DNA of 64,000 nucleotides from Cyanobacteriota bacterium (lineage in GTDB: Bacteria; Cyanobacteriota; Cyanobacteriia; PCC-6307; Cyanobiaceae). Of this stretch, positions 33,222 through 36,062 are shown piece by piece (the first letter of the stretch is position 1; every line of letters starts with the position of its first letter). Location: NCBI GenBank assembly GCA_026389335.1, contig JAPLIB010000089.1, forward strand, positions 1 to 64,000. Direction: 5' to 3'. The translations under genes and the position numbers were made by a program. The notes under the pieces are model-generated. The model was not told the DNA's origin, searched no databases, and saw nothing but the letters and a program-made list of their open reading frames with translations.

Positions 33222-33404
33222 CTCCAGGTTCTATTTCTGGTGGAGACTGCTCTGCATGGACGCCGGTTCTGGCTGGATTTCGAAGGCTGACTGGCTGGAG
33301 TGGCCGGTCATGCAGAGCACCTACTTCGACGTCCGATCGCCATAGGAGCTACCGGAGCTGTTGCCGCCGATTGAGCCCGTGTAGCTGGTCATCAGCAGCA
33401 CCTT

Positions 33405-33573
33405 GCGCCGGTTCGATTGCTGGGGCTGCAGCACCAGCTGGCGATCACGAGGTAATAAAGTGTAGCCTGGATTGGAGCTAATGCTGCCAACGGAGATCAA
33501 AATCAGATCTGACCAGCTCAAGCTGAGCCGTCGCCGCCATAGATATTGCTCTTGCAGCAGTTCTGGCCGTTGC
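33405..33573. repeat. 169-bp direct repeat, copy A
   Basis: Nearly identical to 34003-34171 at a constant offset of 598 bp, with only a few substitutions. The minus strand reads as the last part of a methyltransferase gene (SWSDLILISVGSISSNPGY, LLPRDRQLVLQPQQSNR). In this copy the frame then runs into an unrelated Gly/Ser-rich tail and stops at 33321. The flanking 33222-33404 holds nothing else I can support. Copy A lies downstream of the double-glycine peptide gene and its terminator. Confidence 0.85.
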
Positions 33574-33636
33574 TAACTAAGTTTCCGTCGTTACCCGTTC
33601 ACGATATTGAGACAGGGAGGCGGATGACCAAATCAT

Positions 33637-33664
33637 AAAAAAACCGCCTGCGCAAAGCAAGCGG
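33637..33664 (-). terminator. Strong intrinsic terminator of the double-glycine peptide gene
   Basis: The minus strand reads CCGCTTGC, a five-base loop, then GCAGGCGG and seven T residues. The stem is 8 bp with one G-U pair. It lies 43 bp after the stop of the 33708-33950 gene, on the same strand, so this small gene has a defined transcript end. Confidence 0.85.
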
Positions 33665-33707
33665 GGATCAACTTTGATTCAATAGATTGGCTCAGAAGCC
33701 AACAGTA

Positions 33708-33950
33708 TTACTCAAACAAACTTCCTACCGCATTAAGCCCCCACGCCAATGTAAGTGCATGTGGTCGAATGGCATCAAGCAAAGTACCCTTACTAGAACT
33801 TGCCCTTCTCCAACCTGCTCCTCCTACCACATAACGAGAAGCAGGTCGTTCTGCAAGTCCTCCCGTGATCTTCTGCGCCTCAGTCGAGCTGAGCTCGTCA
33901 GCGTGAACGGCCAACAGTTGGTCAAAATCCTTGGAAATAGGGCTATTCAT
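33708..33950 (-). CDS. Double-glycine leader peptide (bacteriocin/microcin-like precursor)
   Basis: An 80-residue frame from ATG 33950 to TAA. The N-terminus (residues 1-31) is a textbook double-glycine leader: an acidic amphipathic stretch, then ELSSTEAQKITGG, with GG at residues 30-31. Cleavage would release a 49-residue core beginning LAERPASRY. The core has no cysteine, a Gly/Arg/Ser-rich middle and a hydrophobic C-terminal segment (ALTLAWGLNAVGSLF), so it looks like an unmodified class II microcin rather than a lanthipeptide. It starts 31 bp after a methyltransferase pseudogene and has an intrinsic terminator. No C39-peptidase transporter or immunity gene is visible nearby. I saw no Shine-Dalgarno site. 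The assignment is inferred from the leader. Confidence 0.7.
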   Translation of the reverse strand: MNSPISKDFDQLLAVHADELSSTEAQKITGGLAERPASRYVVGGAGWRRASSSKGTLLDAIRPHALTLAWGLNAVGSLFE

Positions 33951-33975
33951 TCAGTTTTTGATGAAAGAGACTACT

Positions 33976-33986
33976 TTTATACTATA
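33976..33986 (-). promoter_or_regulatory. Possible -10 region for the double-glycine peptide gene
   Basis: The minus strand reads TATAGTATAAA about 26-36 bases before the ATG, giving overlapping -10-like hexamers TATAGT and TATAAA in an otherwise GC-rich genome. No clear -35 element is visible. Confidence 0.3.
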
Positions 33987-34736
33987 GGGCATCTGAGTTC
34001 AGGCGGCGGTTCGATTGCTGGGGCTGCAGCACCAGCTGGCGATCACGAGGTAATAAAATGTAGCCTGGATTGGAGCTAATGCTGCCAACGGAGATCAAAA
34101 TCAGATCTGACCAGCTCAGGCTGAGCCGTCGCCGCCACAGATCTTGCTCTTGCAGCAGTTCTGGCCGTTGCCCTGTAGCCAGAAATCATGCCAAACAATC
34201 AAGCCGTCAGGGCGGCACAGACGGGCCAGCAGATAGACACCCATCAGCACATCATCAAAGTAATGAGAACCATCGATGAACAGAAAATCGAAGCTTTCAC
34301 CGCGAAGCTGAAGGCCGATGGCGGCATGATCGGAGCGATCCTGAATCAGGTTTCAGTCATCGCTTTTCAGCTGCTTGGTGCGGGTGAGCAGAGAGGCTGC
34401 ATGGCATTCACCAATGCCGTTCCAGTCACGGCGCTGATACGGATCAATCGCCACGTGACAACCGCCGCCCCGGCCTCCGGGGCCGCCAGCAAAAAGGTGG
34501 TGCTGAATCCATAGCCCCTGCCCATTTCGAGGGTGGAGGTCATGCCAGCGTTGCAGCAGCTGTCGTATGGGAGCATCCTCTCGGCGATTGAGAGGCGTAT
34601 CGACCGGTCGATGGCATAGCTTTTGCCATCGAGTCCCGTCTAAATTGTTGCTATAGAGCGATTGCAGATCGCCGGCACATGGTTCAGCGAGTCGGGCTAC
34701 TTCATCCGCCGTTGTCAGCGGCAGATCTGGTGCCAA
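33982..34736 (-). pseudogene. Class I SAM methyltransferase (Methyltransf_24-like), multiply frameshifted
   Basis: Read on the minus strand and joined across at least four frame changes, the segment gives a normal order of motifs. The N-terminal part includes PLNRREDAPIRQLLQRWHDL. A SAM motif I segment reads LEMGRGYGFSTTFLLAAPEA. Then come VAIDPYQRRDWNGIG, the acidic motif FDFLFIDGSHYFDDVLMGVY and RPDGLIVWHDFW, and a final tail ending LLPRDRQLVLQPQQSNRRLN. These are the landmarks of small class I methyltransferases near glycan or surface loci. No single frame covers them, so the gene is dead or badly sequenced. Its last 55 codons form direct-repeat copy B. Confidence 0.75.
34003..34171. repeat. 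169-bp direct repeat, copy B (3' end of methyltransferase pseudogene)
   Basis: Partner of copy A, 598 bp away. This copy is continuous with the rest of the methyltransferase pseudogene and so is likely the parent. The two copies bracket a 429-bp interval that contains the whole double-glycine peptide gene and its terminator. Confidence 0.85.
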
Positions 34737-34874
34737 GCTAAGGCTGCAGCGGCTGCTGCACCGCTGCGGCTCATGGCTTCAGCGGCCCTTAGCTTCAGTG
34801 CCCGGTTGCCAGCCCGGCCTGGCGCAGTTGGCAGCTGCGACCATTGGCTCGCAGCTGCTGCTGATCCGGTACCA

Positions 34875-36062
34875 ATGTCACCTCATAGCCTCTGCCAGAA
34901 CTGGCGCCGTTCTCGCCATCCCGTTGGGGAGCCCGCTGCAGCCCGGCCGATTCTCTACAGTTTCCGCCGCTGCCCCTATGCCATCCGGGCCCGTTTGGCC
35001 CTGGCTGCCGCTGGCCTTGCGGTGGAGCTGCGCGAGCTGGCGCTGGCCTGCAAGCCGCCGGAGTTGCTCGAGGCCTCGGCCAAGGCCACCGTGCCCGTGT
35101 TGGTGCTGGGCGCTGATGATCCGGGGCTGGCGCCGGATTCGCCCACCCGAACGCTCGATGAAAGCCTGGCGATCATGCGCTGGGCCCTGGATCGTCACGA
35201 TCCAGATGATTGGTTGCGAGCCGGAGATGACGCGGCGGCCGCCGAGATCGAAGCGCTGTTGGCGGCCTGTGATGGGCCTTTCAAGCACCATCTCGACCGC
35301 TTCAAATACGCCAGCCGCTATGTCGAGCCTGACTGCGAGGCAGAGACCAAACCAAATACCAAGTCAAAGACCAAACCAGAAACCAAGGTAAAGACCAAGG
35401 CAACTATTGAGGCCGATACCGAAATGCATCGGCAGGCGGCTCTGGTGCTGCTGCGCGAGTGGAACGCGCGATTGATCATGGCCGCGCCGGCGGGTGCTGC
35501 CGACGGCTGGTTGCTGGGCTCGCGCCCCTCGCTGGCGGACTGGGCCCTGCTGCCGTTCGTGCGCCAGTTTCAGCTGGCCGACCCGGCGGGCTTTGCGGCT
35601 GAGACGGACCTGACCCCCCTGCAGACCTGGCTGGCCCGCTTCCTGGCCGGACCGGAACTGGCGGCGGTGCTGGCGCCGCCCTGGGCCGAGCCGACCCCCT
35701 GGCGTTCGCCCCGCTGGCTCTATCACCTGGCTCTGCCCGAGGAGTGGGCCGAGGCCCAGTCGCAGGGGGAGTACCGGCGCTCCAGCCGCGGCCTCAGCCT
35801 GGAGCAAGTGGGCTTCATCCATGCAAGCTACGCCCACCAGCTAGCCTTCACCCACCGGCTCTACTACGCCGATCTGCCGCGGGTGCTGCTACTGACGATC
35901 GCCCCCCAGCGACTGGCCGCCGCCGGCGTGGTCGTGCAGGCAGAACCGGCAGCCGGGGGCCAGGAATTGTTTCCCCATCTGTACGGAGCCCTGCCGCTGG
36001 CGGCGGTGGTGGCGGTGGAAAACTGGCGGCCGGCTGGGGTGCCGCAGGCGGTGGCGGCATGA
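34875..36062 (+). CDS. Glutathione S-transferase-like protein fused to a DUF952 domain
   Basis: About 395 residues from ATG 34875. The N-terminal thioredoxin-fold GST domain begins YSFRRCPYAIRARLAL (a Cys-x-Y active-site variant), with VPVLVL and DESLAIMRWALDRHD marking the glutathione-binding strand and helix. A helical GST C-domain follows (SLADWALLPFVRQFQLAD). The last 120 residues are a DUF952 domain: LYHLALPEEWAEAQSQGEYR, VGFIHASYAHQL, and LFPHLYGALPLAAVVAV. A 25-residue Lys/Thr/Pro-rich insert (from about 35341) interrupts the GST C-domain. The stop overlaps the next gene by 4 bp. The substrate is unknown. Confidence 0.82.
   Translation: MSPHSLCQNWRRSRHPVGEPAAARPILYSFRRCPYAIRARLALAAAGLAVELRELALACKPPELLEASAKATVPVLVLGADDPGLAPDSPTRTLDESLAIMRWALDRHDPDDWLRAGDDAAAAEIEALLAACDGPFKHHLDRFKYASRYVEPDCEAETKPNTKSKTKPETKVKTKATIEADTEMHRQAALVLLREWNARLIMAAPAGAADGWLLGSRPSLADWALLPFVRQFQLADPAGFAAETDLTPLQTWLARFLAGPELAAVLAPPWAEPTPWRSPRWLYHLALPEEWAEAQSQGEYRRSSRGLSLEQVGFIHASYAHQLAFTHRLYYADLPRVLLLTIAPQRLAAAGVVVQAEPAAGGQELFPHLYGALPLAAVVAVENWRPAGVPQAVAA

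What the first reader, a model, noticed from the sequence alone, without database searches (positions are those of the whole stretch)
33637..33950. Double-glycine leader peptide with its own terminator: a possible new microcin/bacteriocin
The minus-strand gene at 33708-33950 encodes a leader ending ELSSTEAQKITGG, close to the LSxxE...KxxGG consensus of peptides exported and cut by C39-peptidase transporters. The 49-residue core has no Cys, so it is not a prochlorosin-type lanthipeptide. A 7-T intrinsic terminator at 33637-33664 shows a defined transcript. The core resembles no peptide I know.
Basis: partly seen in the sequence, partly recalled or inferred. Interest (0 to 1): 0.75.

Follow-up and report, generated by a model that had tools for sequence, protein, structure and literature searches.

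The report
Orphan double-glycine secreted peptide gene
A bacterium (probably a small cyanobacterium) carries a small stray gene whose product begins with a conserved export tag, so it is very probably cut and secreted by a known kind of transporter, but what the released peptide does is unknown and nothing yet shows that it kills other bacteria.

Summary
Minus-strand gene 33950-33708 encodes 80 residues with a double-glycine leader, and a good intrinsic terminator follows. The motif alone could be chance; relatives settle it. A paralogue on contig C30 of the same genome and a gene in a congener (G308) share the leader, QLLAxHAxELSxxExxxxxGG. The window and C30 cores are unrelated. Leader differences between window and C30 are mostly synonymous (pS 0.77, pN 0.18; p = 4e-6), so the leader is translated and conserved.

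A likely exporter is identified. In G308 the peptide gene lies 2.3 kb past an intact C39-ABC exporter, after HlyD and a truncated methyltransferase. The window's genome carries the same exporter, HlyD and an intact methyltransferase on contig C3 (98% DNA identity). The window gene sits behind a decayed copy of that methyltransferase and an HlyD scrap, inside a roughly 1.6-kb insertion. Orthologous exporters elsewhere often adjoin double-glycine peptide genes.

So it is an orphan precursor, probably matured in trans by the C3 exporter: a new member of a known kind. It is not prochlorosin-type. The antimicrobial claim is unsupported: no immunity gene or core homologue was found. An EbfG-like biofilm role and a silent relic remain open.

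The parts
33858..33950 (-). double-glycine leader, 31 residues, ending ITGG
   Evidence: translation; homologous leaders in C30 and G308; synonymous excess
33711..33857 (-). 49-residue core peptide, no Cys, third-position GC 13 of 49; stop codon 33708-33710
33637..33664 (-). intrinsic terminator, 8-bp stem then T7
33405..33573 (.). 169-bp direct repeat, copy downstream of the gene
   Evidence: 97% identical to 34003-34171
34003..34171 (.). 169-bp direct repeat, copy upstream of the gene
34176..34718 (-). decayed methyltransferase (relative of the PF13578 protein beside the C39 exporter on contig C3), stops in the matching frames
34818..34898 (-). 81-bp remnant of the HlyD gene, near its 3' end
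   Evidence: 84-85% DNA identity to the C3 and G308 HlyD genes
33310..34948 (.). variable insertion between trhO-like and GST-like genes (gene names by eye)
   Evidence: homology to relatives breaks at 33309 and 34949

Best explanation
The gene encodes the precursor of a small secreted peptide. The leader is recognised and cut after GG by the C39 domain of an ABC exporter, which pumps the 49-residue core out with the help of an HlyD adaptor. The exporter is most probably the C39-ABC/HlyD pair on contig C3, acting in trans. The window copy is an orphan: beside it lie only decayed scraps of a methyltransferase and HlyD, the duplicated tail of that operon, while the peptide gene itself stayed open with its own terminator. 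Shown: the gene, a conserved leader on unrelated cores, exporters with catalytic Cys in the genome, linkage in G308. Inferred: expression, export by C3, cleavage. The role of the free peptide is open; I judge a competitive (microcin-like) role and an EbfG-like matrix or signalling role about equally likely.
For: Paralogue in the same genome with the same leader and an unrelated core. Purifying selection on the leader: pS 0.77 against pN 0.18, Fisher p 4e-6. In G308 one contig carries C39-ABC, HlyD, a methyltransferase 5' part and the peptide, with 4.1 kb 98% identical to C3. In the window the remnants HlyD, methyltransferase and then the peptide lie in the same order and on the same strand. 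The C3 exporter has C39, TM and ABC domains and the catalytic Cys, and HlyD follows it. Strict GG-leader scan: 10 of 20 exporter loci positive (13 ORFs in 287 kb) against 1 ORF, the window gene, in 40 control loci (224 kb) and 0-4 per resampled set.
Against: No expression or secretion data. The exporter is on another contig. The other two genes of the module are broken here. Only three members of the leader family were found, and the G308 one is cut by its contig end. Six of the 20 exporter loci, C3 itself among them, gave no accepted GG peptide. Other Cys-intact C39 exporters (C71, C78, C160) could be the partner.
Confidence: 0.75

Rival explanations
1. Decaying relic: the leader was functional in the ancestor, but this copy, stranded among pseudogenes away from its exporter, is no longer expressed.
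For: Methyltransferase and HlyD beside it are broken. No sigma-70-type promoter was found on its strand (that scan does not cover other promoter types). No relative of this exact core was found in 299 order genomes, phages or plasmids, so selection on the core cannot be tested.
Against: The 80-codon frame and the terminator are intact while the neighbouring methyltransferase has stops; a TATAGTATAAAAG stretch lies about 45 bp upstream (read).
Confidence: 0.2
2. Microcin or bacteriocin: the core kills competitors.
For: GG leader, C39 exporter and HlyD are the export parts of class II microcins (recalled); cores diverge completely between paralogues.
Against: No ORF that looks like an immunity gene in the listed ORFs of 40 aa or more; no core homologue; the same export parts serve biofilm proteins in S. 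elongatus (PMC4997328, passages).
Confidence: 0.35
3. Secreted matrix, adhesion or signalling peptide, working like EbfG1-4 of S. elongatus.
For: EbfG1-4 need their GG motifs and a C39 exporter, PteB (PMC4997328, passages); EbfG1-3 form amyloid structures (PMC9981879, passages).
Against: The EbfG amyloid hot-spot motif is absent from the window core. The paper says that mature EbfG proteins show no homology to proteins of other cyanobacteria, so there is nothing to compare by sequence.
Confidence: 0.35
4. Modified peptide (RiPP) methylated by the linked methyltransferase.
For: The methyltransferase family is next to the exporter on C3 and G308, and next to the peptide, as broken genes, in G308 and the window.
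Against: It is broken in both places where the peptide gene lies beside it; on C3 a glycosyltransferase with a Nif11 domain is its other neighbour, so it may serve something else.
Confidence: 0.1

Closest known systems
Cyanobacterial double-glycine precursors with short-type C39 exporter and HlyD (Wang et al. 2011, PMC3140520; group III-like; passages seen)
   Same: GG leader, C39-ABC plus HlyD without an adjoining second ABC transporter (for C39; HlyD), variable cores; the paper counts 150 of 290 precursors in no named family.
   Different: The precursor here is an orphan beside a decayed operon copy. The leader type QLLAxHAxELSxxExxxxxGG could not be compared with the paper's supplementary list, which was not held for me.
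EbfG1-4 with exporter PteB, Synechococcus elongatus PCC 7942 (PMC4997328, PMC9981879; passages seen)
   Same: Small GG-leader proteins (9-10 kDa precursors) needing a C39 exporter.
   Different: Core without the EbfG amyloid motif; orphan gene, not a four-gene operon; no functional data.
Class II microcins (microcin V type; recalled)
   Same: GG leader, C39-ABC exporter, HlyD adaptor, small core.
   Different: No immunity gene seen; activity unknown.
Prochlorosins / Nif11-leader (N11P) and NHLP precursors
   Same: GG cleavage site; conserved leader with variable cores; precursors away from the exporter.
   Different: No Nif11 match, no Cys in the core; leader short. Exporters C66, C71, C78 and C160 score best with the NHLM model, C3 does not.

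Membership tests
Double-glycine (C39-processed) precursor | Short N-terminal leader with LSxxE...GG just before the core | tested here: met
Double-glycine (C39-processed) precursor | Leader conserved among relatives, cores free to differ | tested here: met
   12 identical leader positions in three members; window and C30 cores unrelated, selection on the leader
Double-glycine (C39-processed) precursor | C39 exporter with catalytic Cys in the genome | tested here: met
   C3, C71, C78, C160 (catalytic motif recalled, read by eye)
Double-glycine (C39-processed) precursor | Gene next to its exporter | tested here: inconclusive
   met in G308; in the window only HlyD and methyltransferase remnants
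Double-glycine (C39-processed) precursor | Cleavage after GG and secretion | not testable with these tools
   needs peptidomics or an enzyme assay
Class II microcin / bacteriocin | Immunity gene beside the precursor | tested here: not met
   none recognised by eye among ORFs of 40 aa or more around the gene
Class II microcin / bacteriocin | Antibacterial activity of the core | not testable with these tools
   -
Prochlorosin / N11P | Nif11-type leader (PF07862, TIGR03798) | tested here: not met
   no match at E up to 10 in Pfam or to TIGR03798 in NCBIfam
Prochlorosin / N11P | Cys in the core for lanthionine rings | tested here: not met
   0 Cys
EbfG | Amyloid hot-spot motif A-hydrophobic-N-I-small in the core (EbfG1-3) | tested here: not met
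   motif from PMC9981879, absent
TIGR01847 bacteriocin-type signal sequence | Score over the curated cut-off | tested here: not met
   not among the NCBIfam matches of the protein; window gene not among the 8 places of the genome at E up to 10

The most novel reading that the evidence does not exclude
A modular secretion-tag system: one leader type, tied to one exporter, is joined to unrelated cores and scattered as small cassettes to orphan sites, so that a strain gains new secreted peptides without moving the exporter. The core here, with third-position GC of 27% against 65% in its own leader, would be a captured foreign payload.
Probability: 0.25. Interest if true: 0.6.

Novelty: new member of a known kind. 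Interest (0 to 1): 0.4.

Why it matters
It adds a small leader subfamily with a named probable exporter to the double-glycine peptides of cyanobacteria, whose roles have been tested in very few strains (in the papers seen here, S. elongatus). One genome that holds two precursors with the same leader, kept by selection, and unrelated cores makes leader-exporter specificity and core exchange directly testable with laboratory strains.

Tried and rejected
The Falsigemmobacter hit L046 lies in a long frame that looks like a lytic transglycosylase (by eye): taken as chance. Weak whole-protein matches in 31 other genomes (E 0.002-0.09): of the 29 held as loci (L017-L045), none reads as a small GG precursor; most lie opposite or inside longer frames, the L017/L018 type opposite frames of 820-970 codons: dropped. 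Leader matches below G308 were read and dropped likewise. The phylum match in G412 (E 0.005) lies in a 2737-codon frame: dropped. The small GG ORF in L077 is another leader type, not counted. Viral contigs, phages, plasmids: no relative. The same-contig exporter on C66 was first suspected as partner; set aside because Ser stands for the catalytic Cys and an NHLM-type second ABC follows it. The idea that C3 and C30 are neighbours was not shown: C3 ends in a repeated element and C30 shares no DNA with the C3 end. The one-sequence structure model (mean pLDDT 63, pTM 0.24; helices 4-19 and 57-79) was too poor for a fold search. Sub-threshold matches to Pal (NCBIfam E 0.18; PDB E 0.7 and 0.83) were not followed. 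A text search for pieces of the leader returned 78 papers, 10 listed, all ordinary prose hits to one term. I make no claim that the peptide is absent from print beyond.

Full report
What is there. The minus-strand ORF 33950-33708 has 80 codons, an ATG start, a leader of 31 residues ending ITGG and a 49-residue core without Cys. A stem of 8 pairs followed by T7 begins 43 bp past the stop; it folds at -14 kcal/mol, z -3.24. A bare scan expects about one such terminator by chance in this 1.5 kb, and a strict GG-leader scan gave 4 hits over 20 resampled windows, so neither pattern proves the case alone.

Why the leader is real. Contig C30 of the same genome carries an 87-residue ORF with the leader part FTSDFDQLLAFHADELSPAEAESIAGG. 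A congener, G308, has FTGSSEQLLAFHAEELSLSESEALTGG at the end of contig C123. Twelve leader positions are identical in all three. The window and C30 cores are unrelated (best local match 12 residues, E 0.18 for this single comparison); the G308 core is cut by the contig end. Over 27 leader codons, window and C30 differ by 10 synonymous and 9 replacement codons (pS 0.77, pN 0.18, Fisher p 4e-6); window-G308 p 0.003; C30-G308 p 0.005. The frame is therefore translated and its sequence was kept while silent sites saturated. The Fisher test treats sites as independent and is approximate.

How wide. With a three-row profile only these three places are convincing among 399 genomes of the order (13 genomes with any match at E 0.05; best match outside the three 0.008). 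Among 386 genomes of the phylum, a sample that does not list G308, there was one further match at 0.005, inside a 2737-codon frame and rejected. The three rows match by construction; the independent values are those of single-sequence queries. Whole-protein matches in 31 other order genomes (E 0.002-0.09) are chance: the 29 that I could read show no small GG precursor. The core was not searched on its own.

The exporter. The genome has 7 C39 matches, 6 over the cut-off. Five proteins inspected have C39, TM and ABC domains. Cys is in place in C3, C71, C78 and C160, while the C66 one, on the window's contig, has Ser (by eye). C66, C71, C78 and C160 score best with the NHLM exporter model (525, 624, 647 and 225 bits); C3 scores best with the HlyB type (435), then NHLM (419) and bacteriocin_ABC (397); every one is under the curated cut-off. 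In G308 one contig carries, in order, tRNA-Pro, C39-ABC (716 aa), HlyD (407 aa), a methyltransferase cut after residue 88, and the peptide, and 4.1 kb of this is 98% identical to C3. On C3 a repeated element (14 places in the genome, several at contig ends; probably an insertion sequence, not verified) starts about 27 bp past the point where homology to G308 ends, which is where the G308 peptide gene begins, and the contig ends there. The window peptide lies downstream of a broken copy of that methyltransferase (73% DNA identity to C3) and of an 81-bp HlyD remnant, in the same order and on the same strand. I read the window locus as a decayed duplicate of the operon's tail whose peptide gene stayed open.

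Exporter relatives. Matches to the C3 exporter at E 1e-120 or better occur in 30 of 399 genomes, the window's own included. I fetched 18 of those neighbourhoods and added C3 and G308. The strict scan gave 13 GG-leader ORFs in these 20 loci (287 kb), 10 of 20 loci positive, G308 among them; 1 in 40 control loci (224 kb), namely the window gene; and 0-4 per resampled set. One of the 13 (L187 9646-10002) overlaps the exporter and is probably spurious, and the L193 one lies 3.4 kb away. A looser scan, without a control and judged by eye, adds four (L181, L188, L190, L192); nothing was accepted in L178, L179, L182, L157, L191 and C3, several of them on short contigs. The control loci were not matched for composition or for gene content. 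These peptides do not share the window leader type closely; they support the exporter's trade, not this pairing.

The locus. In G113, G183 and G304 the matches to the two genes that flank the insertion lie 119-139 bp apart; here 1.75 kb. Homology to close relatives breaks at 33309 (G309) and 34949 (G308, G309). Inside are a short-chain dehydrogenase fragment (33303-33405), two 169-bp repeats (97% identical) that flank the peptide cassette, and the operon scraps. In G309 the left flank is joined to the tRNA-Pro region that precedes the exporter on C3 and in G308, so exchange between the two regions is likely. The cassette between the repeats has 47% GC in a 66% window. Third-position GC is 20 of 31 in the leader and 13 of 49 in the core (p 0.001), a hint that the core came from elsewhere; the C30 gene shows no such contrast.

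Mechanism. Shown: gene, leader, selection on the leader, exporter genes, linkage in G308. Inferred: the C3 exporter binds the leader, cuts after GG and exports the core in trans. Function: the microcin reading rests on the export parts alone. In S. elongatus such parts serve biofilm proteins (PMC4997328, passages; PMC9981879, passages), and the 2011 survey lists 150 of 290 cyanobacterial precursors outside the named families (PMC3140520, passages). No immunity gene was recognised among the ORFs, and no significant family or solved relative was found.

Verdict. A real, probably exported orphan peptide precursor; a new member of a known kind; antimicrobial activity unproven.

Noticed in passing
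L079-L086 (contigs C158, C107, C108 of the window's genome): Arrays of short precursors with prochlorosin-like leaders (by eye) ending VAGG or similar, many with very short cores and several without Cys.
   Followed up: no
L058 3373-5568 (contig C66, about 25 kb past the window): C39-type exporter with Ser in place of the catalytic Cys, next to an NHLM-type ABC transporter without C39.
   Followed up: partly
L185 4407-5277, L186 7681-7935, L189 10194-10490, L194 7439-7753: GG peptides beside exporter orthologues with similar-looking cores (N..PQ.N.G.A.A..GG style, by eye), possibly a family of its own.
   Followed up: no
L180 6548-6871, L184 14506-14760: GG peptides with Arg/Ser/Pro-rich repeat cores downstream of close C3 exporter orthologues (67-68% identical).
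   Followed up: no
window 33303-33405: Fragment of a short-chain dehydrogenase gene that matches 21 of 42 congeners elsewhere (my count of the rows); no other copy in the window's genome at that sensitivity.
   Followed up: partly
L059 18838-18977 (end of contig C3): Repeated element, 14 places in the genome, just where G308 has its peptide gene.
   Followed up: partly
L059 15936-17891: Glycosyltransferase with an N-terminal Nif11 domain beside the C3 methyltransferase; a Nif11-cupin protein lies near the related methyltransferase in G325, L105 5476-6033.
   Followed up: no
L009 827-1684: Alpha/beta hydrolase beside the C30 peptide gene; a similar one (by eye) adjoins the methyltransferase in G325, L105 6030-6836.
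   Followed up: no
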